A stretch of DNA of 64,000 nt from Lentibacter sp. XHP0401 (GTDB lineage Bacteria; Pseudomonadota; Alphaproteobacteria; Rhodobacterales; Rhodobacteraceae). Of this stretch, positions 22,140 to 38,165 are shown piece after piece; the stretch's first letter is position 1, and each line of letters starts with the position of its first letter. Both the position numbers and the translations under genes were made by a program. The stretch lies in assembly GCF_025751535.1 (NCBI RefSeq), contig NZ_JAOWLC010000006.1, positions 62,001 through 126,000 of the forward strand, in the 5' to 3' direction. Below the pieces are notes generated by a model. It had not been told where the DNA came from and did no database searches. It saw only the letters and a list, made by a program, of their open reading frames with translations.

Positions 22140-22223
22140 GGGCGACAGGCCGCAAGGTGTGGCAGGGGACTGTAACTCCCTCGCGGAGACGCACGCCTGG
22201 TTCGATTCCAGGGTCGCCCACCA
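22140..22223 (+). tRNA. tRNA-Tyr (anticodon GTA), island attachment site
   Basis: The 84-nt sequence forms acceptor stem GGGCGAC/GTCGCCC, anticodon stem GGGGA/TCCCT with loop CTGTAAC (anticodon GTA), a long class II variable arm with a GCG-GAGA-CGC stem, and T arm CCTGG-TTCGATT-CCAGG, discriminator A and an encoded CCA. The core is unusual: position 8 reads A instead of T and the D arm is atypical. Its last 23 bases are duplicated at 37998-38020, marking it as the integration site of the island, with the tRNA left intact. Confidence 0.88.
22201..22223 (+). repeat. Attachment site attL (23-bp direct repeat)
   Basis: The last 23 bases of tRNA-Tyr, starting TTCGATTCCAGG and ending in CCCACCA, recur identically at 37998-38020 in the same orientation. 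Bases just outside the repeat differ at both places, which fixes the core length. This is the classic outcome of integrase-mediated insertion at a tRNA 3' end. Confidence 0.93.
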
Positions 22224-22286
22224 TTTTACTCAACATGCTGTTTTTTATGGACGTGAGGTGCTACAATGCACCTCATACTGGCTATA

Positions 22287-22316
22287 TTCGATACAAACAG
22301 ACGTGATTTCGATACA
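22287..22316 (+). repeat. Paired TTCGATACA repeats, left end
   Basis: Identical 9-mers TTCGATACA lie at 22287-22295 and 22308-22316, 21 bp apart, just before the integrase ATG at 22317. The same pair with the same 21-bp step occurs near the right end (37887-37916). Position and phasing suggest arm-type binding sites for the integrase or an excisionase, and the left pair could also act as an operator for the integrase gene. Confidence 0.65.
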
Positions 22317-23960
22317 ATGAGTGACGAAGGCAAGATTCCCTACCTGAAGATCGACCGTGGTCGATACTTCTACCAGCGTCGCGTTCCTCAGAAGATGCAG
22401 GCCCATCTCGGCATTCGTCGGTGGCAGTTGCCATGCGGCGATGTCAGCTACTCCAAGGCGGTTCAGATGGTCGTGACTTGGGCTGAGGAGCATGACGAGC
22501 TTATTGCCAGCCTGCGCGACCCTGACAAGCTAAGGAAGGCTGGTGTGACCGCTGTCCGTGAGGCGAAGGCAAAACGTGCCGTTGCATTCGATGAATTTGA
22601 CCTCCCCCGCTTCTATGAGATGACAGAGCGGCTTGAAGGGGAGAAACAGTATTTTCCAAAACATACCATTCCCCGCCCATGGCAAGCTGCTGCAAAGATG
22701 TTGCAAAGCGCCGAAGCAGCCTATGCGGGTCAACCCGATCAAGAAACTAACATCAACACAATCAATTTCTGGATTGAAGAAACGCGACGTGGCGACCCGC
22801 CGAACAGGATCAAAGAAGTTCCCAGATATCCGCAGTTGGTAAAGCACATCGAAACCTTGGACCCAAAACTCGTTCGAGATGCAAAGATCAGACTTATCGA
22901 CCTGCCCCCACCAATGGCACCAGAACTGTATCTGGACTGGTTAGTAGAAGCCTACGATGTCGGGTTTGGACCAGATCGAGAGCCGCCAGTTGATGCTGAT
23001 CAGAAAGATGAGCATGACTTCATCAAACGAAAGCTGGAGCGAAAGATTTCCGAGCTTTCCCCTGACCCGAATACCATCACCGCAGTCACCGAAAGATATT
23101 GTGATTTCAACTCGATCCGATCGGGCACACGTTCAAAGTATCGTCGCGAACTTGCCCGCCTTATTGAGATCACACGAGACGTGCCTATTGGGCACGTGCG
23201 CACAGAACACTTACGCCAGTTGCGAGACAAACTGATTGGTGAAATCAAACCTGCATCGATCCAAGCAGTCTTCACCCCGATCAAAGGCATCTTCAACTTC
23301 GCGTTCGACGAAGACCTGATCAACGTCAACCCAATGGCTGGTGTCAAACTCCCCCGTGACAAGCGGCCAATCGAAGAGCGGAAATGGAAACCATTCGAAC
23401 CTGCCGAGATCAGACGCATATTGGATGCCGCAGAAGCCACATGGGGCAAGCCTGCGAAAGGTCTCACTGATGAACGCCGCAAAGCCATCCATATGGTGGT
23501 CCGTGTTCTCGCATTTTCGGGGATGCGGCCCGTCGAAGTCATTCGACTCACAGCAGATGATGTCGATGATAAGTTGATCAGGATCAAAGGAAGCAAAACG
23601 GAGAGTTCGACACGAGTCGTACCACTACATCCAGAGCTTGCGGGCCTCCACGATTGGATTGCCAATGGCGGCTTAACGACATTCCAAACAATCAAGACAG
23701 ATAAAGTTGGTTCAGTGCGGCACAACTTTGCAAGACTGCTTCGTGAACAGATGCGAGACCCCATCAAAGACCCACAAAAGGCGCTTTACTCGCTACGTTC
23801 AACGTTCGTAAACGCGATGCGTCGCGCTGGTGCAGACATTCAGGTGCAACGGGCAATCCTCGGCCACAAGGAGGCTGGTGCAATCCGTCACTACGACGAT
23901 GGCCCGGAATTTGATGTCAAACGACGCTGGGTCAATGCGACCGACCCAAGGGTTCTGTGA
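22317..23960 (+). CDS. Tyrosine recombinase (site-specific integrase)
   Basis: This phage-type integrase of 547 residues inserts the island at tRNA-Tyr. The N-terminal 40 residues (YLKIDRGRYFYQRRVP) resemble the small domain seen at the front of many alphaproteobacterial island integrases; a SAM-like core-binding domain lies near 240-340. The catalytic domain shows Arg in FSGMRPVEVIRL, Lys in IKGSKTESSTRVVPL, YSLRST (normally HxLRHT), and the final His and Tyr in ILGHKEAGAIRHYDD. I chose ATG 22317; upstream codons overlap the paired repeats. It stands alone next to attL. Confidence 0.95.
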   Translation: MSDEGKIPYLKIDRGRYFYQRRVPQKMQAHLGIRRWQLPCGDVSYSKAVQMVVTWAEEHDELIASLRDPDKLRKAGVTAVREAKAKRAVAFDEFDLPRFYEMTERLEGEKQYFPKHTIPRPWQAAAKMLQSAEAAYAGQPDQETNINTINFWIEETRRGDPPNRIKEVPRYPQLVKHIETLDPKLVRDAKIRLIDLPPPMAPELYLDWLVEAYDVGFGPDREPPVDADQKDEHDFIKRKLERKISELSPDPNTITAVTERYCDFNSIRSGTRSKYRRELARLIEITRDVPIGHVRTEHLRQLRDKLIGEIKPASIQAVFTPIKGIFNFAFDEDLINVNPMAGVKLPRDKRPIEERKWKPFEPAEIRRILDAAEATWGKPAKGLTDERRKAIHMVVRVLAFSGMRPVEVIRLTADDVDDKLIRIKGSKTESSTRVVPLHPELAGLHDWIANGGLTTFQTIKTDKVGSVRHNFARLLREQMRDPIKDPQKALYSLRSTFVNAMRRAGADIQVQRAILGHKEAGAIRHYDDGPEFDVKRRWVNATDPRVL

Positions 23961-24000
23961 GATGAAATACATCTGCATGAGCGTGTGATATACCCTTAAA

Positions 24001-24036
24001 AATAAGGGCATTTGTAAAATTTCAGATGCCCTTATT
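24001..24036. terminator. Bidirectional hairpin terminator after the integrase
   Basis: AATAAGGGCATTTG (24001-24014) pairs with CAGATGCCCTTATT (24023-24036) over 14 bp with one T-G pair and an 8-nt loop. A/T-rich ends on both sides provide T-tracts in either direction, as fits the convergent integrase and metallopeptidase genes. Confidence 0.75.
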
Positions 24037-24131
24037 GGAACAAAACCTACTCACTATTGGGACGCTTCTCCTATAGAATGACACCGGACTAGACCAGCAT
24101 AGGTGCTGGTAACTTATCATATCATTTTGCG

Positions 24132-24860
24132 TCATTCGCTTATGAGATGCTCGACCAATCCATCCAGATGATGCTTGGCCTTACGCCAGTCTCCGGCGTG
24201 GGCGTCGATCAACTTCCAGAAATTCGGTCCATGATCGTGGTATTTGAGATGAGCAAGCTCATGAACCAGCACGTAGTCGATACACGCACGGGGTGCTTTG
24301 ATCAGATGCGAATTTAGGATGACTTCGCCCGCTGGCGAACAACTTCCCCACTGGCGTGACATTTCAAGCAAGCGAAACGGCGGTGGAGCAGTGACCCACG
24401 GCAGCGATTGGGACAGGCTGTCGATCCGTCGGGCAAGGTAGTCACGACCTTTGACGCGGTACCAAGCTCTAACACGTCCCCTTATGTCGTCAGGTGTTCC
24501 AGTCGCGGATTGGACTTCAAGTCGGTTGCCTATGAGGCGGACCGCTGCTGGCTTACCCGTAACGGGGATGACCTTGAGCATATAGCGACGACCGAGATAC
24601 AGGACTTGCTCACCAGACACATACCCCTTGGGTCGAACATGGACATAGCGTTCTCGGGCCTCTTGGACATGGTTGGCCACCCACTTGGCACGTTTCTGAA
24701 CGGCGCTTTTGATGCTGCTGTCATCGAAGCCTTTGGGAGCATCGACAGACACAGAGCCATCAGGATTCACGTGGATTGCTACACGGGATGTGCGGGCGTC
24801 GTCATAGGCCACCTGATACGGGATACGGTCATCCCCATATACCAGCACAAACTGGGTCAC
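24132..24860 (-). CDS. YgjP/DUF45-type metallopeptidase associated with the type I RM operon
   Basis: The 242-residue protein has the zinc-binding HELAHLKYHDHGPNFW motif near residue 200, giving HExxH and a third histidine, together with the upstream RWGSCSP segment (here RQWGSCSPAGEVILNSHLI) of the YgjP/DUF45 family. Members are predicted metal-dependent hydrolases often found behind hsdR. Its start overlaps the end of hsdR by 4 bp, so it is the last gene of the hsd operon. Its substrate and its contribution to restriction are not established. Confidence 0.9.
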   Translation of the reverse strand: MTQFVLVYGDDRIPYQVAYDDARTSRVAIHVNPDGSVSVDAPKGFDDSSIKSAVQKRAKWVANHVQEARERYVHVRPKGYVSGEQVLYLGRRYMLKVIPVTGKPAAVRLIGNRLEVQSATGTPDDIRGRVRAWYRVKGRDYLARRIDSLSQSLPWVTAPPPFRLLEMSRQWGSCSPAGEVILNSHLIKAPRACIDYVLVHELAHLKYHDHGPNFWKLIDAHAGDWRKAKHHLDGLVEHLISE

Positions 24861-27800
24861 TGAGAGTTTCTCACTGATCCAGCACGGACAACGGCGAGAA
24901 CCTGATCAATCAGCGCGTATGCCGCATCGGTGCCGCCAAGCAGGTTGAAATACCGCACCAGCAGGCTTTTCTTGATCGCGGCCTCTAGGTTTCCTGGACT
25001 AATCGAATGGGACTGCACCGCATCTATTACCACAGACTCGATATACAGTGCTTCCTCGACAAGCTTGTCCTCGGTTGGATTCGTTCCGTTCAAATGATCA
25101 AGCAGTAGCCCGTAGTAAGCTTTAGCACGTGGCTGATCAGTGAAACGATCTGGGACACCAGGCGTGTTGCGCTCAGCAACCTGTTCTTCAAGGTCTTTGA
25201 ACATAGTGTATTGCTTACCAGGATGATCGAACATCGCCTCGGCGGCTTGGATCGCTTCTTTCAGCAGTTCTGAAAACACACGTTGGGCATAGGGATCATC
25301 GATCAGGTCTTGCTCGATGGTTTTGCGAAGACGGGTTTTGATGACATCGGCTTCGGTGCGGGTCTTCTCGTCCGTCCAATCATCGGGGCAATCATCCTGT
25401 CCAAGCGTATCAACTCGTATAAAGCCCTCGGGATCAATGATTTCGATACCGTTGACCTGCTTATCAACCATGCGCCTGATCTGGTCTTCGTATGCCGAAA
25501 AATCGACAGTCTCACCAGCATCGCGCTTGGCCTGCACACGCAGTTCTGTGAAGAACCGCAAATCGCGTTTGTAACGCTGGATCGTCTTCTCATCGAATGC
25601 ACCATCTTCAAAGAAGGTGCGGGATGACAGGGCCAGCTTCAGGCACATGCCAAATGCCGTAAGCGCGTCGTAGAAGTCTTCGCGCACCTTCTGAGCCTGA
25701 TCGAAGCTGTGGCCTGCCTCATCCTCTGTGACTCTTGGCACCAACACGCGGCGAAGCTGCTCACGGTCCCCTTTGTTTTGAACGGACCCAAAGATCGCCC
25801 ATAGGGCATCATGCAGGCTTGGCAGGCGTTTGTATTCTGTCGAGACGTTGGAGAACGTGCCAACCAGATCATCAACCTCATACCCGTTCTGGGTCTGTGC
25901 CGCGAGGTCTTGGTAATCCTGAATGGATGTGTCCAGTTCGGCCAAGATACCACGGTAGTCGATCAGATAGCCGAACTGTTTGGCCTCATGCAGGCGGTTC
26001 ACCCGTGCGATGGCTTGCAGCAAGTTATGGCTTTTGAGGTGCTTGTCGATGTAGAGGACAGCGTTGCGCGGCTCATCAAAGCCCGTCAGCAGCTTGTCCA
26101 CGACGATCAGGATGTCAGGCGCACCGTCTGTAGCAAAGCCAGCGATGACATCGTTCTCATACGCATCAGGGTCATTGCCGACGGTTTGGTTCCACCATGT
26201 TTGCACTTCGGGTGTCTTGGCCTCATCGGTGTCATCATGGCCTTCACGGGTATCGGGTGCCGATATCACAACGGCACTGGTGACCATACCAGTATCATCC
26301 AGTGCTTTCTTGTATCTGATCGCCGACAATTTACTGTCGGTGGCAAGCTGCGCCTTGAGGCCAGGACTTTGATCAATGAAGTTTTGCTTGAAGTGTTTGG
26401 CTATATCCCGTGCGATGAGTTCGATACGACGCTCAGCTTTGTAGACTTGCCCACGGGTCGCATATTTCTGCTTTAGATCGGAAAGCTGCTGTTCGGACAG
26501 ACCTTCGGTTCTTTGTTCGAACCAAACATCGACAGCACGTTCGTTGATATCAACGATGGGCTTGCGTTCTTCATAAACCAACGGGGTGACCGCACCGTCT
26601 TCAACGGCATCCTGCATGGTATAAGCATGAAGGATAGGACCGAACTTGTTACGGGTCTTGTCTTCTTTCAACAACGGTGTGCCAGTGAAGGCGATGAACG
26701 CCGCGTTCGGCAAAGCCTGCCGCATTCTTTCATGATTTTCGCCACCTTGGCTACGGTGACCTTCATCAACCAGCACGATCAACTTGTCTGACGTATTCTT
26801 GCACTCGGGCATTTTGGTGGCTGAATTGAATTTTTGTAGCAGCGTGAAGATGATCCGACCGTTCCCCGATCCGATCTGCTTCGCCAGATCACGACCCGAC
26901 TGCACCTTGGCCTTCTCACCGTCCTTCTTAGTCGCAACGACCGATCCGAATGCACCGCCTGTCAGGAACGTCGCAGCTAGTTGCTTCTCAAGGTCAACGC
27001 GGTCGGTGACGATGATGATACGGCTGCTGGCAAGCTCGGGATCGAGCAACAGTGCTTTGGTAAGCAATACCATCAAGTTCGACTTGCCTGACCCAGTGGT
27101 GTGCCAGATCACGCCGCCTTCGCGACGACCATCGGGCTTTTGCTTGGCCACCTGTGACAGGATCGCTTTGACACCACCGAACTGCTGGTATCGCGCTACG
27201 ATCTTTTTGGTGCCACGGTCGTAGAAAATGAAGCGCCTGGTGAAGTCGAGCAGCCTGTCGGGCCTAAGCAGGCTGATGATCATGCGATCCTGCTCAGTGG
27301 GCAGCACAAGGCCGCTGTGCAGGCGCTCAAAGTCATTCCTAGCCCAGCGCGGTTTGTCGGCAAACAGCAGGGCCTTCTGATCCTCGCTCAGCGGTGTGGA
27401 TTTCACATCCTGCATCTGAGCCTCAGAAATTTCTTCCTCTTTCCACGCCCCCCAGAACTTTTTCGGCGTTTCGGTCGTGCCGTACTTGGCATCGGTGCCC
27501 GAGATCGACAGCAGCAGTTGCGAATACGCATAGAGTGTCTGGATGCCCTGATTCTTCTGGTTTCGATTGTGCTGACTGATCCCTTCGGCAACCATGGACT
27601 TCTCTACTGACGACGACGTGGGTCGCTTTGCCTCGATTACCACCAGCGGCAGGCCGTTCACGTAGCACACGACATCGGGCCGATACTGTCTCTTCCCAGC
27701 GGGGCGTTCCACGCTGAGTTCTTCGGTAACATGGAACAGGTTCGCATCCACGTTGGCCCAATCAACCAACGGGACGGTAACGGATGTCTTGTGGCCCTCC

Positions 27801-28129
27801 ACAAACTCGTCAACCGTGATGCCAAGCGTCAACTGCTTGTAGATCGCTTCATTCGCCGCGATCAGACCTTCGTTCAGCTTGGTGGTAGTGATCGCCTTGA
27901 TCACCTGATTGATACCACTACCCGACAACGGATGTTGCTGTCCCTTGAAGTCAAACCGATGCGCGGCCAACCACTCGCGCAACACAGGGTCCAGTAATAC
28001 CGACCGTTCAGACCCACGCATTGCCAGTGCATCGGCAGGCGGCAGATAGGTCCAGCCCATGACCATGAGGACGTGCAAAGCGGGTAGCTTTGATGCTGCT
28101 TCTTCGCGGGTGTCGGGGGTGTGAGTCAT
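24857..28129 (-). CDS. hsdR: Type I restriction enzyme R subunit HsdR
   Basis: HsdR is the translocating and cleaving subunit of type I restriction. The 1090-residue protein has an N-terminal PD-(D/E)XK nuclease domain (YRPDVVCYVNGLPLVVIEAKRP, Asp and EAK near residue 155-175), a superfamily 2 motor with Walker A TGSGKSNLMVLL, the DEGHRSQ box, FTGTPLL and a later VDKLLTGFDEPRNAVLY segment, and a helical C-terminal domain that docks on the methylase. I chose ATG 28129, 7 bp after GGAG. It lies downstream of the coiled-coil gene and overlaps the metallopeptidase. Confidence 0.96.
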   Translation of the reverse strand: MTHTPDTREEAASKLPALHVLMVMGWTYLPPADALAMRGSERSVLLDPVLREWLAAHRFDFKGQQHPLSGSGINQVIKAITTTKLNEGLIAANEAIYKQLTLGITVDEFVEGHKTSVTVPLVDWANVDANLFHVTEELSVERPAGKRQYRPDVVCYVNGLPLVVIEAKRPTSSSVEKSMVAEGISQHNRNQKNQGIQTLYAYSQLLLSISGTDAKYGTTETPKKFWGAWKEEEISEAQMQDVKSTPLSEDQKALLFADKPRWARNDFERLHSGLVLPTEQDRMIISLLRPDRLLDFTRRFIFYDRGTKKIVARYQQFGGVKAILSQVAKQKPDGRREGGVIWHTTGSGKSNLMVLLTKALLLDPELASSRIIIVTDRVDLEKQLAATFLTGGAFGSVVATKKDGEKAKVQSGRDLAKQIGSGNGRIIFTLLQKFNSATKMPECKNTSDKLIVLVDEGHRSQGGENHERMRQALPNAAFIAFTGTPLLKEDKTRNKFGPILHAYTMQDAVEDGAVTPLVYEERKPIVDINERAVDVWFEQRTEGLSEQQLSDLKQKYATRGQVYKAERRIELIARDIAKHFKQNFIDQSPGLKAQLATDSKLSAIRYKKALDDTGMVTSAVVISAPDTREGHDDTDEAKTPEVQTWWNQTVGNDPDAYENDVIAGFATDGAPDILIVVDKLLTGFDEPRNAVLYIDKHLKSHNLLQAIARVNRLHEAKQFGYLIDYRGILAELDTSIQDYQDLAAQTQNGYEVDDLVGTFSNVSTEYKRLPSLHDALWAIFGSVQNKGDREQLRRVLVPRVTEDEAGHSFDQAQKVREDFYDALTAFGMCLKLALSSRTFFEDGAFDEKTIQRYKRDLRFFTELRVQAKRDAGETVDFSAYEDQIRRMVDKQVNGIEIIDPEGFIRVDTLGQDDCPDDWTDEKTRTEADVIKTRLRKTIEQDLIDDPYAQRVFSELLKEAIQAAEAMFDHPGKQYTMFKDLEEQVAERNTPGVPDRFTDQPRAKAYYGLLLDHLNGTNPTEDKLVEEALYIESVVIDAVQSHSISPGNLEAAIKKSLLVRYFNLLGGTDAAYALIDQVLAVVRAGSVRNSQ

Positions 28130-28186
28130 ACAACACTCCAATGCAGTGCAACTTTGGCAAGGTGCCGTGAAAATATAACCGAGCAG

Positions 28187-28861
28187 CTATTTGAAAGCAT
28201 ATTGGCTGAACTTCTTTGTTTCTTCATCCATAATTCCAGCCGCCCATTCACCGTCGGCGGTCCATTCAGCAACGGCCACTTCATACCCAATGCGTGTACC
28301 GCGTTGAGCAGCAAGCTTGTCGATATGGTGTATGATGGCGTTGCGGCGTTGGCGCGTTAGCGGTCGCCCCCAGCTTGTTTGATAGGTCTTGGCCAATGGG
28401 TCGGTTAGTCGTGCCCGCATTACATAGCGGATGATTTCGCGGCGCTCACTTTGACGAAGCCCACGGGTTTTTCCGACGCGGTAGCCGTAGAAGGTAAGCG
28501 GGGAGACATCCTCACCATACCAACTTTGGCCGCGTGGTAATGGGTTTTCAGATTTGTAGTCTCTATGCGCTTTGGCAACTGAATTGGGCATACCTTTGGA
28601 GACGAGGCTGTCAAATTCTTTTTCTGCATCGGCTTTCTTACGTTCCCGCTCAAGCCGCTGTGCCTCCCGATGCTGCCGATCTAATTCCTCTTGCTCGGCC
28701 CGCTCCTTGGTCAAACGCTCCAGTTCTTTGGTACGCCGCTCTTGCTCCAATCGCTTCTGTTCTTTTTGCTCTTCGGTCTCGCGATAAAAAAAGAACCAGA
28801 TCGCCAAAGCGATGAGGGCATAAAATAAGAGTTTGATTAAACTGAGGGAGGCTCCGTCCAT
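28187..28861 (-). CDS. Membrane-anchored coiled-coil protein of unknown function inside the hsd operon
   Basis: I do not recognise this 224-residue protein. Residues 8-26 are one hydrophobic span (LIKLLFYALIALAIWFFFY), residues 27-90 form a highly charged coiled coil of Glu, Arg and Lys repeats, and residues about 95-224 form a basic soluble domain containing YGYRVGKTRGLRQSERREII and TSWGRPLTRQRRNAIIHHID. The predicted topology is a short N-out or N-in anchor with the bulk probably cytoplasmic. Its ATG shares one base with the hsdS stop codon, and hsdR follows after 57 bp, so it is co-transcribed with the restriction genes. A role in tethering, scaffolding or signalling is inference. Confidence 0.85.
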   Translation of the reverse strand: MDGASLSLIKLLFYALIALAIWFFFYRETEEQKEQKRLEQERRTKELERLTKERAEQEELDRQHREAQRLERERKKADAEKEFDSLVSKGMPNSVAKAHRDYKSENPLPRGQSWYGEDVSPLTFYGYRVGKTRGLRQSERREIIRYVMRARLTDPLAKTYQTSWGRPLTRQRRNAIIHHIDKLAAQRGTRIGYEVAVAEWTADGEWAAGIMDEETKKFSQYAFK

Positions 28862-30060
28862 TAGACCACTACCCGCCGCTTCCCCGTGAGAAGCTGCTGC
28901 ATCAGGGCCTTCTTCTCGGTGCGGAGTTTGGTGAGATCGGCTTGCACGTCATTCACAAACCGATCCGCATCATCCAGTGTCTCTGTGATCTTTTCCTGCT
29001 CGGCCAAGCTTGGAAAGAATGACTCAATCTTCGCGAGGTCTTTCTTGGTGATGTGTTTCATACTGGTCCCGTGAACCTTTGAAACAAGTTTGCCGATTTC
29101 GTGTGTTATCAGGTGAAAACCAAACATCTTTAGTGTGTCCGACTTCGGCACGACCTTAAAAATATGTTGGTTCAACACAGCCACAGGCCCAGTCCAGATG
29201 AATGTGTCGAGTGTCGCTGACCACGACAAAAGGAAATCACCACTTCGGATCGTGTGCTTTTCGTCCACCACACCATCATAGTAGTTGATCGCGTCAGTTG
29301 AACCCGTGAGGTTTTGTATCCTGATGATAGGAAAACCCACATCACCCCAATCATCTGGTTTGAACGCACGACCATTTATGAAATCGAAGTGATCCACCAG
29401 CTTTCCACTATTCCATGGCTGACCTTCGAACACGGGGAAGCGGCGTTTGCCTGTGAGGAGTTGCTGCATGAGGGCGCGTTTTTGGGTGCGGGCGTTGCTC
29501 AGCAGGGCCTCGGTCTTTTCAATGGCCTGATCCCACGTCGAGAGGATATCCGCGATCTTTTGTTGTTCGGGGAGTGGGGGGAGAAGTATAGGGAACGTGA
29601 ATAGCTCTTTGAGGGTTATCGAGACTTGATTGGCATTGCCTCGCACCAGACCCGAAATGAAGGTGATGAACCGATTGTCCTTTAGGTGAGGATACAAAAT
29701 TTCAGATATGACTCGATCTTTTTTTGGGGCCAGTTTCACTAAGTTCTGGTTCAAAAGACTGCCTTTGAAGTTCGCTGGTATACGAACTGCCTTGCCAACC
29801 ATTGAGTCCAGAAGATGTGGTCGGGACCCCACAGTGCTTACAATGATGTCCCCACCAAATAATTGCCAATCACTAAAGCCATCCGCCCTGTCTTCAGCAA
29901 CATACTTCGGATTGTTTGAGTGCAAACCGTCTCGTGTTGTATCGGAAATGCGAATGACCCGCACACCATTTTCAGAGTAGTCGGATGAATCGAAGGCGAA
30001 CCCTTTTTTGTAGTTCACCACATCCCCAAGACTGGCTTTGCTCCACCCCTCAGGAACCAT
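28861..30060 (-). CDS. hsdS: Type I restriction-modification specificity subunit HsdS
   Basis: HsdS gives the target specificity of both methylation and restriction. The 399-residue protein has two target-recognition domains (about 1-150 and 205-350), each followed by a helical spacer with the conserved LPPLPEQQKIADILSTWD (about 165) and FPSLAEQEKITETLDDAD (about 365) segments, and each half ends in the repeat ALMQQLLTGKRR. The bipartite target cannot be read from sequence. The ATG at 30060 overlaps hsdM by 11 bp. Confidence 0.95.
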   Translation of the reverse strand: MVPEGWSKASLGDVVNYKKGFAFDSSDYSENGVRVIRISDTTRDGLHSNNPKYVAEDRADGFSDWQLFGGDIIVSTVGSRPHLLDSMVGKAVRIPANFKGSLLNQNLVKLAPKKDRVISEILYPHLKDNRFITFISGLVRGNANQVSITLKELFTFPILLPPLPEQQKIADILSTWDQAIEKTEALLSNARTQKRALMQQLLTGKRRFPVFEGQPWNSGKLVDHFDFINGRAFKPDDWGDVGFPIIRIQNLTGSTDAINYYDGVVDEKHTIRSGDFLLSWSATLDTFIWTGPVAVLNQHIFKVVPKSDTLKMFGFHLITHEIGKLVSKVHGTSMKHITKKDLAKIESFFPSLAEQEKITETLDDADRFVNDVQADLTKLRTEKKALMQQLLTGKRRVVV

Positions 30061-31558
30061 AACCAAGCTCCTGCAAATACCCTGCCATGCGGGTTTCTAA
30101 TTCGGCTAGATCGTCTTTCAACTTTACCCGTTCGGCCCGCACCGCCATCAGATCAATCTCGTCTTCCTCTTCAAACGTGTCCACATATCGTGGTATGTTC
30201 AGGTTGAAGTCGTTCTCAGCGATCTCGGCCTGCGTTGCACGATAGGCGTACTTCTCCACCGATGCGCGATCCGTGAATGTCTGCATGATCTTGTCGATGT
30301 TGGACGGTTCCAGCGCGTTCTGGTTGCTGCCTGATGCAAACTCTCGGCTGGCATCGATGAACAGCACCGAGTCGTCCGCCTTGTGTTTGCGGAACACCAA
30401 CAGCGCGGCAGGGATGCCAGTCCCAAAGAACAGTTTTTCGGGCAGGCCGATCACCGCATCCAGCAGGTTCTCCTCAATCAGCTTCTGACGGATTTTCCCC
30501 TCGGTCGATCCACGGAACAGAACACCATGGGGAACGACGACCACGGCACGGCCCGTCTTGGGTTTCAGCGTCTCGATCATGTGCAGGATGAACGCATAGT
30601 CGCCCTTGGTCTTGGGCGGGATACCACGACGGAAGCGTCCGAATGTATCAGCCTCTGCGGTCGCAGTCCCCCATTTGTCCAGAGAGAACGGCGGGTTGGC
30701 GACGACCACATCGAAGTGCCGCAGCGCATCTTCCTTCACCCGGAGCTTCGGGTTGCGGATGGTATCACCCCAGAGGACTTCGTGGTTTTCTTCGCCGTGC
30801 AGGAACAGGTTCATCTTGGCCAACGCCCATGTGGACCCGATGGATTCCTGCCCGTAGAGAGCGTAACGTTTGGTCCCCGTCTTGTTGCGTATCTGACGCC
30901 CGCATTTCATCAGCAGCGACGCGGACCCGCAGGTTGGATCACAGATGTCATCCCCTTCTTGAGGATCGGCCAGACGCGCCATCAGGTCGGACACTTCGGG
31001 TGGTGTATAGAACTCGCCAGCCGTTTTGCCCGCTGTCGCCGCGAAGTGTTTGATCAGATACTCATAAGCCCCACCGATGATGTCCAACTGCCCCACACGG
31101 GACGGACGCAGGTCCAACGCGGGCTTGGCGAAGTCCTCTAGCAGGTGGCGCAGCAGGTCGTTTTTCTGTTCCTCATCCCCCAGCTTGGTGCTGTTGAAGT
31201 GGATGTCTTGGAACACCTGATCCAGCTTGTTGCCGTTGGCCTCTTGGATGGCATGGAGGGCCTTGTCGATGCGTTCACCGTTACCAGCCTCATGGCGACG
31301 CTTGTGCAGCGTGTGGAAGCTGGCATCGGGTGGTAGCACGAACGACTCCTGCTGCATCATCGCAGCGACCAGTTCTGGGCTGTCAGGGTGTTCCGCCTGA
31401 TACGTGGCGAGATGGTCTTTCCAAACATCAGAGATGTATTTCAGGAAGAGCATGGTGAGTACGTAGTCTTTGTAGATCGATGGATCGACCACACCACGGA
31501 AGGTATCACACGCCGACCACGCCGCATTGTTGATTTCGGATTGGGAAACTTGGGTCAT
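30050..31558 (-). CDS. hsdM: Type I restriction-modification DNA methyltransferase HsdM
   Basis: HsdM is the N6-adenine methyltransferase subunit, working as M2S1. The 502-residue protein has an N-terminal HsdM helical domain (NNAAWSACDTFRGVVDPSIYKDYVLTMLFLKYIS), then GEFYTPPEVSDLM, the SAM motif DPTCGSASLL and the catalytic NPPFSLDKW. C-terminal coiled-coil residues contact HsdS. It overlaps the XRE regulator gene by 4 bp upstream and hsdS by 11 bp downstream. Confidence 0.97.
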   Translation of the reverse strand: MTQVSQSEINNAAWSACDTFRGVVDPSIYKDYVLTMLFLKYISDVWKDHLATYQAEHPDSPELVAAMMQQESFVLPPDASFHTLHKRRHEAGNGERIDKALHAIQEANGNKLDQVFQDIHFNSTKLGDEEQKNDLLRHLLEDFAKPALDLRPSRVGQLDIIGGAYEYLIKHFAATAGKTAGEFYTPPEVSDLMARLADPQEGDDICDPTCGSASLLMKCGRQIRNKTGTKRYALYGQESIGSTWALAKMNLFLHGEENHEVLWGDTIRNPKLRVKEDALRHFDVVVANPPFSLDKWGTATAEADTFGRFRRGIPPKTKGDYAFILHMIETLKPKTGRAVVVVPHGVLFRGSTEGKIRQKLIEENLLDAVIGLPEKLFFGTGIPAALLVFRKHKADDSVLFIDASREFASGSNQNALEPSNIDKIMQTFTDRASVEKYAYRATQAEIAENDFNLNIPRYVDTFEEEDEIDLMAVRAERVKLKDDLAELETRMAGYLQELGYGS

Positions 31559-32013
31559 TTATGTGCTGCCTGTTTGAATAAAAGAGTGATCAAGCCTTGG
31601 TATTGGGAGGGATCAAATGGGTTCGACTTAACCTCGGTCGGCTGGGTGGCTTCTTGTTGAAGGATTTCGACAACGGCCTCCCCTACCAGTTCTGGGGCAG
31701 GACGCACATCGAGAGCTTGTGCCTGTTGTTCCACCATGGCCACGATTTCTGCAATACGACGGTAGTGAGCATGGTGTGCGGGTAGCGCGTCATCACCTTG
31801 AAGAAGCTTTCGGGGATCAACGCCGTACAGGTCTGCCAATTCAAACAGACGTTCGGCACTTACAGTTTCGGATTTATGCTCCAGCCGCCAAATCTGTACA
31901 CGACTGACACCCAAGGCTTTAGCGGCATCATCCATACTCATATCAGACCGCTCCCGAGCAGTTCGGATGCGGTCAAAAAGGTGTTTCGTTGAATCGCTTG
32001 AAAGTTTGGCCAT
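31555..32013 (-). CDS. XRE-family regulator heading the hsd operon
   Basis: The 152-residue protein has an N-terminal helix-turn-helix (RSDMSMDDAAKALGVSRVQIWRLEHKSETVSAERLFELADLYGV) and an acidic C-terminal part with an alanine- and glutamate-rich helix. It overlaps hsdM by 4 bp, so it heads the operon, and probably controls it as controller proteins do in other restriction systems. The ATG at 32013 gives MAKLSSDS; the longer frame adds an unlikely cysteine- and aromatic-rich leader. It is divergent from a small Cro-like gene across about 90 bp. Confidence 0.88.
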   Translation of the reverse strand: MAKLSSDSTKHLFDRIRTARERSDMSMDDAAKALGVSRVQIWRLEHKSETVSAERLFELADLYGVDPRKLLQGDDALPAHHAHYRRIAEIVAMVEQQAQALDVRPAPELVGEAVVEILQQEATQPTEVKSNPFDPSQYQGLITLLFKQAAHK

Positions 32014-32058
32014 TTCATATCGTGTAACGATTTGGAAGAAGATGCAACAAACATGCAA

Positions 32059-32096
32059 ATTACCTGTGACGAATCATTTGTTACATGATAGGTAAT
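32059..32096. promoter_or_regulatory. Candidate operator between divergent HTH genes
   Basis: ATTACCT (32059-32065) and AGGTAAT (32090-32096) form a 7-bp inverted repeat across 24 bp, lying between the XRE gene and the Cro-like gene. Additional TGTAAC/GTTACA words occur in the same 90 bp. A divergent switch like those of phages or controller-regulated restriction systems is possible. Confidence 0.35.
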
Positions 32097-32102
32097 GGCC
32101 TT

Positions 32103-32321
32103 ATGACACTCAAGGATTACCTCGATCAGAACAAACTTAGCCTGAAAGCTTTCGGTGACCGCTGCGGCGTTAGTGCTCCAACGGTAATGAGGGCACGAGA
32201 TGGTATTAACATTCCATCCCGCAGAACGCTTCGGGCAATCGTCGATGCCACGAACGGGGCTGTCAGCATACAGGAATTGGTCAGGGTCGATCACGATACC
32301 GATGTGGCGCAGCAAAACTGA
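32103..32321 (+). CDS. Small Cro/C1-type helix-turn-helix protein
   Basis: The 72-residue product is little more than a helix-turn-helix: LDQNKLSLKAFGDRCGVSAPTVMRARDGINIPSRRTLRAIVDATNGAVSIQEL. Its size and position, divergent from a larger XRE regulator, recall the Cro partner of a CI/Cro-like switch. I chose ATG 32103; an in-frame ATG at 32085 would add MIGNGL. Targets are likely the shared intergenic region. Confidence 0.82.
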   Translation: MTLKDYLDQNKLSLKAFGDRCGVSAPTVMRARDGINIPSRRTLRAIVDATNGAVSIQELVRVDHDTDVAQQN

Positions 32322-32405
32322 AAACTGGTGAACGTTACCATATGCCGTAGCACTATGTTTGGCGGTTGCCCCGAAAAAAACGATTACTCACACTGGGAGA
32401 CACAA

Positions 32406-32720
32406 ATGAAAATCATTCAAATCACGGCATATTTGGCCTTGTTCGGCACCACGGCTATTGCTGACAGTGATCCGAAATACAAAGACCCAAACGTAATCCT
32501 GGCCGATCTTCGGGAGTCACAATCGATTTGCCAAACTATGGCTGACGGGCAAACCAACGCAGAAATTTTCGGGATCACTTTCTCCCGAGTGGGTAACAAA
32601 TGCCAGTACGCCAACGGGGAATTGGATGATAACGTCCGAGCCTTTCTTGAAGACCAAAAGCTGGATTGGGCTGGCGTCAGCGGGCGCGACGGTCTTTGGG
32701 TCGTTGTGGATGGCAACTGA
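32406..32720 (+). CDS. Small secreted protein, unrecognised
   Basis: The 104-residue product has a typical signal peptide (MKIIQITAYLALFGTTAIA, cleavage near AIADS) and a mature domain with two cysteines (ICQTM and NKCQYA) that may pair. The ATG at 32406 follows GGGAGA by 6 bp. I recognise no family. It is island cargo immediately before a convergent ribbon-helix-helix gene. Confidence 0.7.
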   Translation: MKIIQITAYLALFGTTAIADSDPKYKDPNVILADLRESQSICQTMADGQTNAEIFGITFSRVGNKCQYANGELDDNVRAFLEDQKLDWAGVSGRDGLWVVVDGN

Positions 32721-32724
32721 ACGG

Positions 32725-32892
32725 TCATCCCTGACCTTCATCACCATCTTCATCATACTCACATGCATAATATTCACGAATGCAGTCGGATAGGATCGCA
32801 CCACAGAATCTTTGTTCAACCTGACGAAGATGCAAAAGGATATCCCAAGCTTCTGTATCAACACCTTTGACTGTGACCTTTTTTCTATCCAT
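32725..32892 (-). CDS. Ribbon-helix-helix (CopG-like) small protein, 55 residues
   Basis: A short frame too small for ordinary ORF lists. It begins at the ATG at 32892, 6 bp after GGAGGA, a strong ribosome binding site. The product starts MDRKKVTVKGVDTEAWDILL and continues with an AILSDCIREYY helix: a short beta strand followed by two helices, which is the ribbon-helix-helix layout of CopG/Arc proteins, then an acidic tail. It is divergent from the putative HUH initiator gene across 162 bp. CopG-type proteins repress rep genes of rolling-circle plasmids, so it is a candidate repressor of that gene (inference). Confidence 0.7.
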   Translation of the reverse strand: MDRKKVTVKGVDTEAWDILLHLRQVEQRFCGAILSDCIREYYACEYDEDGDEGQG

Positions 32893-33054
32893 CTCGCGTC
32901 CTCCGATTGTCTAACTGTATTTAGCACCAGGGGTCATCCCGATGGGCACAGTTATTCTGGCCAGTATTTATTTTGCTAAACGTGAGCATTTCGACGGGCG
33001 ATTTACCTAGATACCTTTACGGGCCTCATTTTGTTGGTCCGAAAGGAACAAGTA

Positions 33055-34275
33055 ATGTCGAGATTATCAAAGAAGACACTTCAGAAAAGACGCCGAAGTG
33101 AAAGTATTCATAGTGGCACGGTATACCAACAAAAGGTTGCCATTCTTGAACACTTACAGCAGGCGCTTACACCTGAAAATGCACAGTGGATTCAGCCGAT
33201 CCTAAACCGAGTTGGCCGATGCAAACCAGCCTATCGATGCAACTCAAAGCACTGCCCCACTTGCTCTAACGCAAAACAATCCAAAGCAGTCAGAAAGAAA
33301 ACCAAACAGTTGAAACCACTGGGCAAAGCCCAAGCAACAACCACCAGTTCAAAATCTAAAGAATATCGTGTACGCGGCGGGCAACGTATGATGGACGCGT
33401 TTGAGGGCTTGCCTACAGCGATGCTACATTGCTTCACGGTTAATCTATGCCTTGTCTCTTTCGACGATGATCTCAAAGAAACCAAAGAGCGGTATCTTTT
33501 GAAGCTACGGAAAGTGTTAAACAAATTGACCGATGGAGCCATTGCACGAGGAAAATTTGACATTGTATCAAAATATGCTGATGATCTGCCATCGGAGTTT
33601 CCAGATATCGATCTCCCCTTTGGCGTTTTCAACGCTGCATTACCTCACACTCGGCACGTGATGCTCCATATCCATTTTTTGCTGTTCGATCCGTGGATGA
33701 CGCGAGTAGAGCTACGGAACCTCTTTGCCAAAGAGTTTCCTGGCAGCAATAGGGTTTGTGCACGTCGCACCAGAGATCATACTGTGTTGGAGTGCGGCAC
33801 CATGGTAGGTGGCGCTCAAGGGTACCTAGAATACATGTGCATGGAGAAAGTTGAATTGTCCTTCGGAGATCAATCTGCTGACGCTGCTTTAGAATTCGTC
33901 CAGATCGATAGCACTTGGGACAGAAGAAACCGAAATTTCTCTTTTGGGAAATCCATATCAGTCAGCGGTATAGTCATCGACCAAGATCGTGTAAAATACC
34001 TCGAACGAGAAAACCGATTACAATGGATCAAGAAGAACTGGTCAAAGTTGAGTTATGCTGAGAAGTTCATTCATCAGTGGATGTCCAACGGTATAGATAT
34101 CTTGGCTGGTATCAAATCCCTGCCAAATTACCGCGCTCAGTTCATAGACAAGTTCAGTGCAGTCTTGCTCTTACATTGTAACTGGGTAAGATGGAATTTC
34201 TTTGAAGTAATTGATTTCGTTGGCTTCATGAGTGCGTCAGACTCAGAGTTGGCCCTGTTAGAACCACCAGACTAG
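33055..34275 (+). CDS. Putative HUH-type (rolling-circle) replication or relaxase initiator
   Basis: The 406-residue protein has a basic N terminus, a cysteine cluster CNSKHCPTC (residues 62-70) like the zinc site at the front of Rep_1-type initiators, then three segments in the order of HUH nucleases: FTVNL (about 127-131), LHIHFLLF with the His-hydrophobe-His pair at 205-207, and GYLEYMCMEK (about 256-265) with a candidate nucleophilic Tyr260 and Lys265. Motif spacing fits, but the family match is by eye only. ATG 33055 follows AAGGA. The C-terminal third is unrecognised. It may replicate or mobilise the excised island. Confidence 0.6.
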   Translation: MSRLSKKTLQKRRRSESIHSGTVYQQKVAILEHLQQALTPENAQWIQPILNRVGRCKPAYRCNSKHCPTCSNAKQSKAVRKKTKQLKPLGKAQATTTSSKSKEYRVRGGQRMMDAFEGLPTAMLHCFTVNLCLVSFDDDLKETKERYLLKLRKVLNKLTDGAIARGKFDIVSKYADDLPSEFPDIDLPFGVFNAALPHTRHVMLHIHFLLFDPWMTRVELRNLFAKEFPGSNRVCARRTRDHTVLECGTMVGGAQGYLEYMCMEKVELSFGDQSADAALEFVQIDSTWDRRNRNFSFGKSISVSGIVIDQDRVKYLERENRLQWIKKNWSKLSYAEKFIHQWMSNGIDILAGIKSLPNYRAQFIDKFSAVLLLHCNWVRWNFFEVIDFVGFMSASDSELALLEPPD

Positions 34276-34505
34276 CGATTAGAGAAGACCTTTTTAGACT
34301 TGCTCAAAATTGGAATAAAATATCTCGTCTCCCCGCTAAAAACGCAGGTTAATTGAGCATCAACGCCAAAACACGCTGTAAGTAAATGCAGCGAACGGAG
34401 AGCGTGTGTGTTACATAATCCAGACCTGCATTTGTTGGCCTACCATCGGTTCTTTTGCGCTGCATTCATAAATAGAGTTGAACGAACATCAACTTGGAGA
34501 CAGCG

Positions 34506-34910
34506 ATGCCACGCAAACATCAGCCAACAATCACGAACATCGAACCTACCAAAGCCGAACTTCAAAAACTACGGGAAGAGGTATCTCGTGAGAACAAGTC
34601 ACGCGATGCTTCTGGATTACCACCGTTCAATGAAGCGGAAACGTTTGACCGACGCGCAGCAAAGCTGGCAGACGACAAATTTGAAGAACTGTTGGAGCCA
34701 TATCTGGTTGCAGCGTACGAAATCTACACTGGTAGCCCTGGCGTGGCCAACAGGCTCAAGCAACACATTGACGTATACCAACACGCCGAAAAAGCAATGC
34801 TCGACGATACAGGACTGCGTCGGCCAAATCCAAAGCCGTTCAACATGATGAAATTTCTGAGCATGTATTTTGGTGAAGAGCTTCCAGTTGCATCTCGACG
34901 GAACCGCTGA
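34506..34910 (+). CDS. Hypothetical protein, unrecognised
   Basis: The 134-residue product is charged and probably helical, with KAELQKLREEVSRENKSRDASGLPPFNEAETFDRRAAKLADDKFEELLEPYLVAAYEIYTG split over the first two thirds, and a conserved-looking end (NMMKFLSMYFGEELP). No signal peptide or membrane span is seen. The ATG at 34506 follows GGAGA by about 6 bp. It comes after the HUH-like gene by 230 bp on the same strand and may share its transcript. Confidence 0.7.
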   Translation: MPRKHQPTITNIEPTKAELQKLREEVSRENKSRDASGLPPFNEAETFDRRAAKLADDKFEELLEPYLVAAYEIYTGSPGVANRLKQHIDVYQHAEKAMLDDTGLRRPNPKPFNMMKFLSMYFGEELPVASRRNR

Positions 34911-34963
34911 CTGCAATATTGGCACCCGATGGTAACGTGGCCGAACTGGTCGGAATTAGCAGC

Positions 34964-35518
34964 CTATCGCTGACTGGCTGGCAGTGTTCGGTATAGCGTT
35001 GGTACCGAGATTCCAAACGCAGCCGCAATGTCGATGGCAGGTGTTCCGGCCTTGAACATCGCCTTAGCGCCACTAATCTGCTGATCCGTCATTTTGCGTG
35101 GACGACCACCAACGCGACCTCGACTCCGCGCTGCTGCAAGTCCGATATTGGTCCGCTCAATGAGTGTATCACGCTCCAGTTGCGCACAGGCCGCCATCAC
35201 CGTGAATAACATCTTACCTGTCGGTGTTGTGGTATCGATAGCCTCAGTCAGCGACTTGAAACCTATGCCCCGCTCTTCAAAATCAGTCACGATCTTGATC
35301 AAGTGGGATACCGATCTCGCCACACGGCTAAGGCTAAGGCAAACGAAGGTATCGCCTGTGCGGCAGAATTCGAGGGCTTCCTTCAACGTGGAGCGATCCG
35401 CTTTCGCCCCAGATGCGACTTCTTGAAAAATGCGTTCACACCCCGCTCGTGCCAGTTGATCGATCTGGCCATCAAGATTTTGGGTAGCGGTCGAAACTCT
35501 CGCGTATCCAATCAGCAT
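34964..35518 (-). CDS. Serine recombinase (resolvase/invertase family)
   Basis: The 184-residue protein has the resolvase catalytic domain with the nucleophilic serine in IGYARVSTATQNLDGQ, the LSLSRVARSVSHL and FTVMAACAQLERDTLIERTNIGL helices, and a C-terminal helix-turn-helix (GTPAIDIAAAFGISVPTLYRTL). Such enzymes resolve cointegrates or invert short segments at res/dif-like sites. No transposase accompanies it. Its 5' end abuts the start-less remnant at 35605-35835, which suggests that it arrived by insertion. Confidence 0.95.
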   Translation of the reverse strand: MLIGYARVSTATQNLDGQIDQLARAGCERIFQEVASGAKADRSTLKEALEFCRTGDTFVCLSLSRVARSVSHLIKIVTDFEERGIGFKSLTEAIDTTTPTGKMLFTVMAACAQLERDTLIERTNIGLAAARSRGRVGGRPRKMTDQQISGAKAMFKAGTPAIDIAAAFGISVPTLYRTLPASQR

Positions 35519-35604
35519 CGCATCCCCCTGTCATTCTTGAAACTCATCAGATCATAAAGGGATCGAGGGTAAATTTCGAGCAAGGGTTACGAGAAGCACA
35601 AACA

Positions 35605-35835
35605 TTGGATGTCAGGTGTTTCATCTTGGCCGGGTTTCGAGCATCGCCAACGACCGATATCGAGAAGTGCCTCAAGCGCGACAAGTTGCCAATCATGGTT
35701 AAGGATATATCTGTTGAGCCGTCGATCACAGGAAACGTTGACCCAAGTGCAATTGCTTTCACATTTGCCCAAAAAATTTATGCTGAAGCTGGCGTTTCAC
35801 TCAAGCCTCGTATTCGCGGTGACAGTTATACGTAA
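35605..35835 (+). pseudogene. Possible 5'-truncated gene next to the resolvase
   Basis: From about 35521 to 35835 an open frame reads like a real protein (IIKGSRVNFEQGLREAQ, later PIMVKDISVEPSITG and FTFAQKIYAEAGVSLKP), but it has no ATG or GTG; the first usable start is the TTG at 35605, preceded by GAGAAG. The frame is closed by a stop codon inside the divergent resolvase gene. The simplest reading is the C-terminal part of a gene cut by the resolvase insertion. A genuine 76-residue gene from the TTG is the alternative. I recognise no family. Confidence 0.4.
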
Positions 35836-35878
35836 CGGCAACATCTTTCATGAAAGTAGTAGACATCACACTGACTTG

Positions 35879-36916: not shown

Positions 36917-36918
36917 GA

Positions 36919-37632: not shown

Positions 37633-37886
37633 TGCAACGGTCCAATTATTTCAGGGATAACTTATCTGTTGATTAACACGGCGACTGCATCTGTGCCAGC
37701 GCAGCCGCAAACCGCTTCGCCAATTGGTGCGGCGGTCGCGGATGCGGACCAATTTGCTACACCTAAATGGTGACAATCATTCACTTTCGGTCATGACGCA
37801 CTCCCGTCACTACCGAATACTTATGAATTTATCACTAGACCTGAAACGGGCCGTTTCTGACAAAACATCGATACCACCCTTCTGGT

Positions 37887-37916
37887 TTCGATACATTCAG
37901 TCACTTTTTCGATACA
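37887..37916 (+). repeat. Paired TTCGATACA repeats, right end
   Basis: TTCGATACA occurs at 37887-37895 and 37908-37916, again exactly 21 bp apart and in the same orientation as the pair at 22287-22316. A third, imperfect copy (ATCGATACC, 37867-37875) lies 20 bp to the left. The pair ends about 80 bp inside the right attachment repeat. Arm-type integrase sites are the likely explanation. Confidence 0.65.
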
Positions 37917-37997
37917 TATAAGAAAAACATCCATAGACCACCTCTCAAAAATCCTTCGAAAATAAGGATAATTGCGAGTATTAGAGCTTATGGTGAA

Positions 37998-38020
37998 TTC
38001 GATTCCAGGGTCGCCCACCA
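37998..38020 (+). repeat. Attachment site attR (23-bp direct repeat)
   Basis: These 23 bases repeat the 3' end of tRNA-Tyr (22201-22223) exactly, including the encoded CCA. Sequence to the left is not tRNA-like, so this is the displaced copy left by insertion and it marks the right boundary of the island. Confidence 0.93.
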
Positions 38021-38165
38021 CTTACAAACATGACCACCCCCGCGAGAGAGAGACTATTGCCCTCTACTTTTAGGGTTATTGTTTCCAAATCCCTCCAATA
38101 CCCTTGGAAGGCGCACAAGATTGTATCTATAGTGGCAACAAAATAGCGAGATCCGAGCAAATCCC

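What the first reader, a model, noticed from the sequence alone, without database searches (positions are those of the whole stretch)
24132..32013. Type I restriction operon with an embedded membrane-anchored coiled-coil protein and a metallopeptidase
XRE regulator, hsdM, hsdS, an unknown protein (28187-28861), hsdR and a YgjP-type peptidase are fused by 1-11 bp overlaps into one operon (57 bp before hsdR). The unknown protein has one membrane span, a long charged coiled coil and a basic C-terminal domain with YGYRVGKTRGLRQSERREII. A membrane anchor inside a restriction operon suggests that the complex is tethered at the envelope, for example where phage DNA enters, or that it senses injection. 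This is the best candidate here for an undescribed defence variant.
Basis: partly seen in the sequence, partly recalled or inferred. Interest (0 to 1): 0.75.

Follow-up and report, generated by a model that had tools for sequence, protein, structure and literature searches.

The report
Membrane-anchored gene swapped into restriction operon
A bacterium's DNA-cutting defence operon carries, in a slot where relatives hold quite different defence genes, a membrane-anchored protein of an apparently undescribed family that also turns up beside many other antiviral systems, so it is probably an exchangeable defence part rather than a piece of the DNA-cutting enzyme.

Summary
In detail: XRE, hsdM, hsdS, a 224-aa membrane/coiled-coil protein ("CC"), hsdR and ygjP form one tight operon, on a 15.8-kb island between tRNA-Tyr and a repeat of its end. 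CC reaches no curated family. It has one membrane span, a long coiled coil and a compact all-helical C-terminal domain (CTD; AlphaFold pLDDT 89-93) without a convincing structural relative. Two tests place it. (1) Its three closest homologues also sit between hsdS and hsdR; the 17 more distant membrane-type relatives do not, and 12 of those 17 lie by BREX, Lamassu, DUF4011, DISARM-like, Type ISP, HNH/DUF262 or other recognised defence genes. (2) The slot is exchangeable: in related operons (HsdR 38-88% identical) it holds Kiwa, Shedu, Fic, Abi, kinase, GIY-YIG, PDDEXK, DUF3800 or unknown genes, or nothing (at least 18 changes on a 24-HsdR tree; one clade for CC-bearing HsdRs rejected). CC is most likely an embedded, inner-membrane-anchored defence module acting on incoming phage DNA by a Kiwa/SNIPE-like principle (inferred), not a dedicated tether of this enzyme. 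Embedding in this slot is known; the protein family appears undescribed. Function is untested.

The parts
28187..28861 (-). CC: 224-aa protein; single membrane span (about residues 6-27), charged coiled coil (to about residue 88), all-helical CTD (about residues 93-219) with GYRVGKTRGL...R...WGxP...R...AVAEW..D
   Evidence: homologues
28861..30066 (-). hsdS specificity subunit, upstream border of the cargo slot (ATG start 30060)
   Evidence: Pfam Methylase_S 1.8e-37
30050..31558 (-). hsdM adenine methyltransferase subunit
   Evidence: Pfam N6_Mtase 4.6e-104, HsdM_N 6.9e-23
24857..28129 (-). hsdR restriction/translocase subunit, downstream border of the cargo slot (an upstream TTG start at 28141 is also open)
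   Evidence: Pfam HSDR_N, SWI2_SNF2 2e-71; PADLOC REase_I E 0
24132..24860 (-). YgjP-like (SprT/M48-type) zinc metallopeptidase, last gene of the operon
   Evidence: Pfam YgjP-like 1.2e-56; a homologue follows hsdR in 24 of the 24 operons compared, the window included
31555..32058 (-). XRE-family HTH regulator, first gene of the operon (ATG start 32013)
   Evidence: Pfam HTH_3 6.5e-10
22266..23960 (+). tyrosine integrase of the island
   Evidence: Pfam Phage_integrase 3.4e-10; PHROG_1 1e-42
22201..22226 (+). island end: 3' end of tRNA-Tyr (gene 22140-22223)
   Evidence: ARAGORN; direct repeat
37998..38023 (+). second copy of the tRNA-Tyr 3' end (96% over 26 bases), other end of the 15.8-kb island

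Best explanation
The operon is a Type I restriction-modification operon on an integrated island, and its hsdS-hsdR junction is a cargo slot for exchangeable defence genes. The occupant here is a member of an apparently undescribed family: an inner-membrane-anchored protein (short N terminus outside, one span) whose coiled coil oligomerises and holds a small all-helical CTD in the cytoplasm near the membrane. Most likely it is a defence module in its own right that uses location to tell phage from self: the CTD binds incoming phage DNA or the injection apparatus at the inner membrane and blocks it or exposes it to the cell's DNA-destroying machines, the principle of Kiwa (which occupies the same slot in two relatives) and SNIPE. 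Shown: gene, operon, island ends, slot exchange, family distribution, no match to known nuclease families. Predicted: membrane span, topology, fold. Inferred: anti-phage activity, oligomerisation, independence from HsdRMS, and the ligand of the CTD.
For: Slot exchange: HsdR 88% identical (G145) has two other genes, 80% (G307) KwaA+KwaB (PADLOC 3e-55, 1e-100), 68% (G271) nothing, 60% (G197) a 158-aa protein plus a kinase. A Kiwa pair again in G855; Shedu+DUF3800, Fic, NucS+Abi, PDDEXK, GIY-YIG, AAA ATPase in plasmid operons, as annotated (Shedu also by PADLOC). At least 18 changes of slot content on a 24-row HsdR tree; CC-bearing HsdRs as one clade rejected (p-AU 1.5e-92). Membrane-type homologues beside other systems: BREX (L049, L010), Lamassu LmuA/LmuB (L038), DUF4011-MTES_1575 proteins (L009, L042), DrmMI-like methylase with a DpdE/DrmD-like helicase (L043, L046) or alone (L047), Type ISP methylase + PLD-SNF2 helicase (L041), HNH + DUF262/HEC-05 (L040). 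21 of 21 examined members have a strongly hydrophobic N-terminal span. CTD conserved and folded with confidence. Precedents: SNIPE, single N-out span with cytoplasmic domains, cuts DNA during injection (PMC13190303, abstract and sections 5 and 9 read); Kiwa, as summarised in PMC12904381 (passages).
Against: No assay exists. The CTD has no recognised catalytic motif and no convincing structural relative, so 'blocks or cuts' is not derived from the fold. The CTD is not uniformly basic (net -2 to +11 over 18 members), which weakens direct DNA binding. Topology rests on charge bias, weak for the window protein (-1 before, 0 in the 25 residues after the span) and contradicted in L033 and L042 (negative after the span) and L039, L043, L046 (+1 before it). 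The closest homologues are all in hsd operons (3 of 3, plus the window), which would also fit a dedicated partnership. Proteins with the same CTD but no comparable span occur beside the same kinds of system (L014, L015, L016, L026), so the anchor is not essential to what the CTD does. Three of 21 loci show no recognised defence gene.
Confidence: 0.45

Rival explanations
1. Adaptor: CC docks DNA-targeting machines (here HsdRMS, elsewhere BREX, Type ISP, DISARM-like, DUF4011 helicases) on the inner membrane through its CTD, raising their local activity where DNA enters.
For: Most recognised neighbours are DNA-translocating or DNA-modifying machines; CC sits at a fixed place inside operons (hsdM-S-CC-R in four; directly after the DrmMI-like gene in L043, L046, L047); the CTD looks like a binding domain without catalytic motif; the closest clade is hsd-only (window and 3 of 3 homologues).
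Against: Partners are unrelated proteins, so one small domain would have to bind many surfaces unless it binds the shared substrate, DNA; operons with HsdR 68-88% identical lack CC; Lamassu and DUF4011 loci share no subunit with hsd.
Confidence: 0.22
2. Abortive-infection effector: CC oligomerises through its coiled coil and, when the CTD senses infection, damages or depolarises the inner membrane so that the cell stops growing.
For: Small single-span protein with a coiled coil and a conserved cytoplasmic sensor-like domain; the same slot carries Abi, Fic and kinase genes in relatives.
Against: The span is an ordinary hydrophobic anchor; proteins with the same CTD and no comparable span occur beside the same systems, which a pore model does not need.
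Confidence: 0.15
3. Non-defence passenger or regulator: a mobile-island gene (for example an anti-restriction, stability or expression-control protein) that happens to sit in defence operons.
For: 3 of 21 membrane-type loci show no recognised defence gene and 2 only a weak or distant one (not every neighbour was scanned); slots can hold genes of unknown role.
Against: 16 of 21 loci have recognised defence or restriction genes within 10 kb, of at least six unrelated kinds. Ten of 21 have an adenine-methylase-type gene there, while N6_Mtase matches number 28 in 20 relatives (about 71 Mb; my arithmetic), i.e. expected within 10 kb of under 1% of random loci; relatedness of loci is not corrected for.
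Confidence: 0.18

Closest known systems
Genes embedded between hsdS and hsdR of Type I operons (DarTG2 in EPEC, PMC12255303; TgvAB in V. cholerae and RloF in Campylobacter, PMC11411939)
   Same: Position inside a Type I operon, between specificity and restriction genes; [quoted passage not shown]
   Different: Those cargos are toxin-antitoxin or GmrSD-like systems; CC is a single membrane protein and matches none of their domains.
SNIPE (PMC13190303)
   Same: Topology: short periplasmic N terminus, single span, elongated cytoplasmic part with a C-terminal domain; members with and without a predicted span in one family.
   Different: [quoted passage not shown] CC matches neither and is embedded in other systems' operons.
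Kiwa (KwaA-KwaB)
   Same: Inner-membrane defence system found in the very same hsdS-hsdR slot of two relatives (G307, G855).
   Different: Two genes, with a separate DNA-binding partner KwaB and a multi-span KwaA (recalled); CC is one gene with one span and matches neither PADLOC family.
HEC proteins ('guilt-by-embedding', Payne et al. 2024 preprint, seen only as cited)
   Same: Single genes embedded in multigene defence loci.
   Different: CC matches no model in PADLOC 2.0.0, which includes HEC-05.

Membership tests
Type I restriction-modification operon | HsdM, HsdS and HsdR with their defining domains in one operon | tested here: met
Type I restriction-modification operon | methylation and ATP-dependent restriction activity | not testable with these tools
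   needs methylome sequencing and restriction assays
Embedded defence gene of the hsdS-hsdR slot | lies between core genes of a defence operon, in the same direction | tested here: met
   same place in L033, L034, L035
Embedded defence gene of the hsdS-hsdR slot | alternates with known defence genes at related operons | tested here: met
Embedded defence gene of the hsdS-hsdR slot | anti-phage activity | not testable with these tools
   plaque assays needed
SNIPE | N-terminal single membrane span | tested here: met
   hydropathy, 21 of 21 members examined; orientation inferred from charges only
SNIPE | DUF4041 domain | tested here: not met
   not among the Pfam matches at E 1 or better
SNIPE | GIY-YIG nuclease domain | tested here: not met
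   not among the Pfam matches; CTD predicted all-helical, without strands
Kiwa | KwaA membrane protein plus KwaB (DUF4868) | tested here: not met
   no PADLOC match of CC; the other genes of the operon are hsd, XRE and ygjP genes
Zorya | ZorA/ZorB motor plus ZorC/ZorD | tested here: not met
   no PADLOC match of CC at E 0.1 or better and no Zorya gene among the six operon proteins scanned

The most novel reading that the evidence does not exclude
The CTD is a general front-end of prokaryotic DNA immunity: a small helical domain that binds a feature common to entering DNA or to injection machinery, fitted with a membrane anchor in many lineages and plugged into otherwise unrelated DNA-targeting systems (Type I RM, BREX, Type ISP, DISARM-like, Lamassu, DUF4011) so that they act at the membrane where phage DNA enters. 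It would be a shared membrane-docking module for classical restriction enzymes.
Probability: 0.2. Interest if true: 0.85.

Novelty: new variant of a known kind. Interest (0 to 1): 0.6.

Why it matters
It identifies a conserved, apparently undescribed domain family, membrane-anchored in many members, that recurs beside at least six unrelated kinds of defence system, and it documents a Type I restriction lineage whose hsdS-hsdR junction works as an interchangeable cargo slot (Kiwa, Shedu, Fic, Abi and others). That makes two things testable: whether location at the membrane is used by restriction-type systems to tell phage from self, and whether unknown occupants of this slot are new defence genes.

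Tried and rejected
Known-family explanations: GspM (NCBIfam E 6e-5, 22.8 bits against a cut-off of 60), Vpu, YebO, Rz-spanin and similar weak matches cover the span and charged segment and were rejected as composition. The best PDB sequence match (FAM155A, E 0.0019, query residues 6-104) covers mainly the same part; a second (inorganic triphosphatase, E 0.11, residues 102-208) is not significant; the CTD profile finds nothing at E 1. The GYxVGKT...R motif looked to me like a GIY-YIG start; rejected because the CTD is predicted all-helical. VIA-align's best row (Bcl-xL, Z 5.4, rmsd 4.9 over 90 residues) is within the range its note gives for a common helical arrangement; this does not show that the fold is new. 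Foldseek gave nothing better than E 1.8.

Dead ends: viral-contig scans with the whole protein and with two sub-family profiles found no relative (a third profile found three); no phage record matched; one soluble homologue had no DNA match in E. coli genomes. Whole-genome searches with CTD profiles gave 8 of 398 (phylum sample) and 2 of 385 (class sample, broader profile); the genome sets differ and only the top candidates of a loose first look are scored, so these are lower bounds, not prevalences. In my notes ygjP was missing in G276; a six-frame check corrected this: my ORF caller had chosen an overlapping ORF. The label DUF3800 for the L075 slot gene was by eye; it did not match the L072 DUF3800 protein, so I recounted with it as unknown: still 18 changes.

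Literature: searches did not turn up a description of this protein family (listings, plus passages of five papers); the BREX survey PMC12839542 has no occurrence of 'transmembrane' in its main text. Subscription papers and most preprints are not in that library, so absence from print is not shown.
Full report
OBSERVATION. Pfam identifies HsdM, HsdS, HsdR, a YgjP-like metallopeptidase and an HTH regulator, and PADLOC and NCBIfam agree for the three Hsd subunits. CC (28861-28187) reaches no curated cut-off in Pfam or NCBIfam and has no PADLOC match; PHROGs gives only weak matches. The operon lies on an integrated island: an integrase gene stands just after tRNA-Tyr, and the last bases of the tRNA gene recur at 37998-38023 (26-nt repeat, 96%), enclosing 15.8 kb.

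ANATOMY OF CC. One hydrophobic span starts at residue 6, followed by a highly charged segment. AlphaFold2 with 18 sequences gives a single helix from residue 3 to 88 and a compact all-helical CTD (mean pLDDT 92.6; the CTD alone 89.3, pTM 0.84). All 21 members examined have a strongly hydrophobic N-terminal span (18; L009, L010, L045). The charge bias suggests N-out/C-in, but only loosely: among 18, the stretch before the span is net zero or negative in 15 and the 25 residues after it net zero or positive in 16; for the window protein the values are -1 and 0. The CTD is the conserved part. Residues invariant over the 18 include S120, P121, L122, G126, Y127, V129, G130, T132, G134, R140, Y160, W164, G165, P167, R172, H179, R187, R190, A196, V197, W200, D203 and W206; over 24 CTDs, including seven from proteins without the anchor, a core of L, Y, V, G, R, W, R, A, W and D remains invariant. 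Foldseek and VIA-align found no convincing relative.

WHERE HOMOLOGUES LIE. I examined 21 distinct membrane-type loci: the window, 15 from the scan of bacterial and archaeal genomes, three from viral contigs and two from plasmids (one of them, L010, with a stop inside the coiled coil). In four (window, L033, L034, L035; 56-62% identity to the window protein) CC lies between hsdS and hsdR, with ygjP after hsdR. The other 17 are elsewhere. Twelve of these have recognised defence or restriction genes within 10 kb: L009 and L042 next to DUF4011-MTES_1575 proteins; L010 after BrxL and L049 divergent from a BREX locus with PglX and BrxC; L043, L046 and L047 directly after a DrmMI-like methylase, with an HNH gene downstream in L046 and L047; L040 with HNH and DUF262/HEC-05 genes and L045 with an HNH_2 gene; L041 upstream of a PLD-SNF2 helicase and a Type ISP methylase; L038 with LmuA and LmuB of Lamassu and a YaaC-like gene; L050 with a C5 methylase, a WYL protein and a PDC-M26A-like gene. 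Two are weak (L036: one PDC-S32-like gene; L044: an SNF2-type helicase about 6.7 kb away). In three (L037, L039, L048) I recognised none, though not every neighbour was scanned. As a rough yardstick, N6_Mtase matches number 28 in 20 relatives of about 71 Mb together, so a random locus would have one within 10 kb in under 1% of cases (my arithmetic); here 10 of 21 loci (window, L033-L035, L040, L041, L043, L046, L047, L049) have an adenine-methylase-type gene or fragment within 10 kb (relatedness among loci is not corrected for, and the two counts do not use one and the same model). The family is rare: 7 of 394 genomes of the taxonomic family gave a match at E 0.001 or better, the window's own included, four of them of the membrane type (G000, G193, G237, G016).

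CTD WITHOUT THE SPAN. Proteins of about 160-360 aa carry the CTD without a comparable hydrophobic stretch (maximum 19-residue hydropathy 0.5-1.4 in nine of ten; L032, with an uncertain start, 1.9). They lie next to BREX genes (L014, L015), hsd-like genes (L016; L031 at about 4 kb) or Type ISP plus PLD-SNF2 genes (L026). On a Proteus plasmid the CTD is inside an 850-aa protein near annotated restriction and methylase genes. So the CTD is the common unit and the anchor an option, as with SNIPE, where 34% of homologues lack a predicted span (PMC13190303, section 9).

RECIPROCAL TEST: THE SLOT. Searching with HsdR rather than CC found 8 of 394 family genomes, the window's included, and 2 further ones in a sample of 372 genomes of the class. 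In these ten operons the hsdS-hsdR gap holds CC in 2 (window, G193), KwaA+KwaB in 2 (G307 and G855), a 158-aa protein plus a kinase in 1 (G197), DUF3800 in 1 (G276), unknown genes in 2 (G145, G845) and nothing in 2 (G271; G269, which has RhuM between hsdM and hsdS). Twelve plasmid operons, picked by me for variety from 439 matching records, most of them (351) Klebsiella, hold nothing in 3, and otherwise PDDEXK, Fic, NucS+Abi, a 278-aa unknown, YecA, AAA ATPase plus unknown, GIY-YIG, Shedu+DUF3800 and TIGR04141, by the records' own annotation. With L034 and L035, which were found through CC, this makes 24 operons; a ygjP homologue follows hsdR in all 24. On the HsdR tree slot content changes at least 18 times; leaving out L034 and L035, 17 times. 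Having CC or not changes at least 3 times (2 without those two), and a tree with the four CC-bearing HsdRs as one clade is rejected (p-AU 1.5e-92). In the seven closest operons (L033-L035, L067-L070) HsdM is 72-95%, HsdR 60-88% and YgjP 41-77% identical to the window's, while HsdS (28-42%) and the slot differ.

MECHANISM. Shown: an exchangeable slot, and a family concentrated beside DNA-targeting systems. Predicted: anchor, coiled coil and fold. Inferred: a defence module acting at the inner membrane on incoming DNA. Two studied systems make this plausible: SNIPE, an N-out single-span protein that cuts phage DNA during injection, and Kiwa, which a review describes as a membrane complex brought to the injection site. 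Kiwa's presence in the same slot shows that membrane systems occur there. Against a dedicated tether: operons with close HsdRs lack CC, and CC relatives have unrelated partners. The adaptor reading stays open because the closest clade is hsd-only and the CTD has no catalytic signature.

WHAT IS KNOWN. Embedding of defence genes in this slot is established (DarTG2, PMC12255303; TgvAB and RloF, PMC11411939; abstracts and passages read), and the RptR paper already calls the site a potential hotspot. What appears new is the protein family and its spread over systems; the searches that failed to find it are listed under Tried and rejected, and they cover an open-access library only.

Noticed in passing
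window 35879-37632 (- strand): A DarT-DarG pair (DarT: Pfam 1.4e-28, PADLOC 2e-37; DarG: PADLOC 1.6e-113, Macro domain 6.1e-21) on the same tRNA-Tyr island, so the island carries at least two defence systems.
   Followed up: partly
window 22224-38023: 15.8-kb genomic island between tRNA-Tyr and a repeat of its 3' end, with integrase, hsd operon, a resolvase (34964-35518, Pfam Resolvase 1.4e-42), and DarTG.
   Followed up: yes
[quoted passage not shown]
   Followed up: yes
L087 4268-6501: Shedu (SduA 1.4e-170) plus DUF3800 in the same slot, with RhuM between hsdM and hsdS: one hsd operon carrying three further genes.
   Followed up: partly
L040, L043, L046, L047: Recurrent set DpdE/DrmD-like helicase - DrmMI-like methylase - CC homologue - HNH_2, with DUF262 in L040 (not every member in each locus): looks like an unnamed DISARM-like defence operon with CC as a standing member.
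   Followed up: partly
L053 7639-10191: 850-aa protein with the CTD in its middle and no Pfam or PADLOC match, on Proteus plasmid pHFK418-NDM beside annotated restriction endonuclease, GIY-YIG, helicase and methylase genes.
   Followed up: no
L010 8701-9411: CC homologue after brxL on a Pseudorhodobacter plasmid with an in-frame TAG in the coiled coil, possibly a decaying copy.
   Followed up: no
L067 3488-4474: Two unknown genes (113 and 214 aa) in the slot of the operon closest to the window (HsdR 88% identical); no Pfam or PADLOC match, hence candidates for further unknown defence cargo.
   Followed up: no
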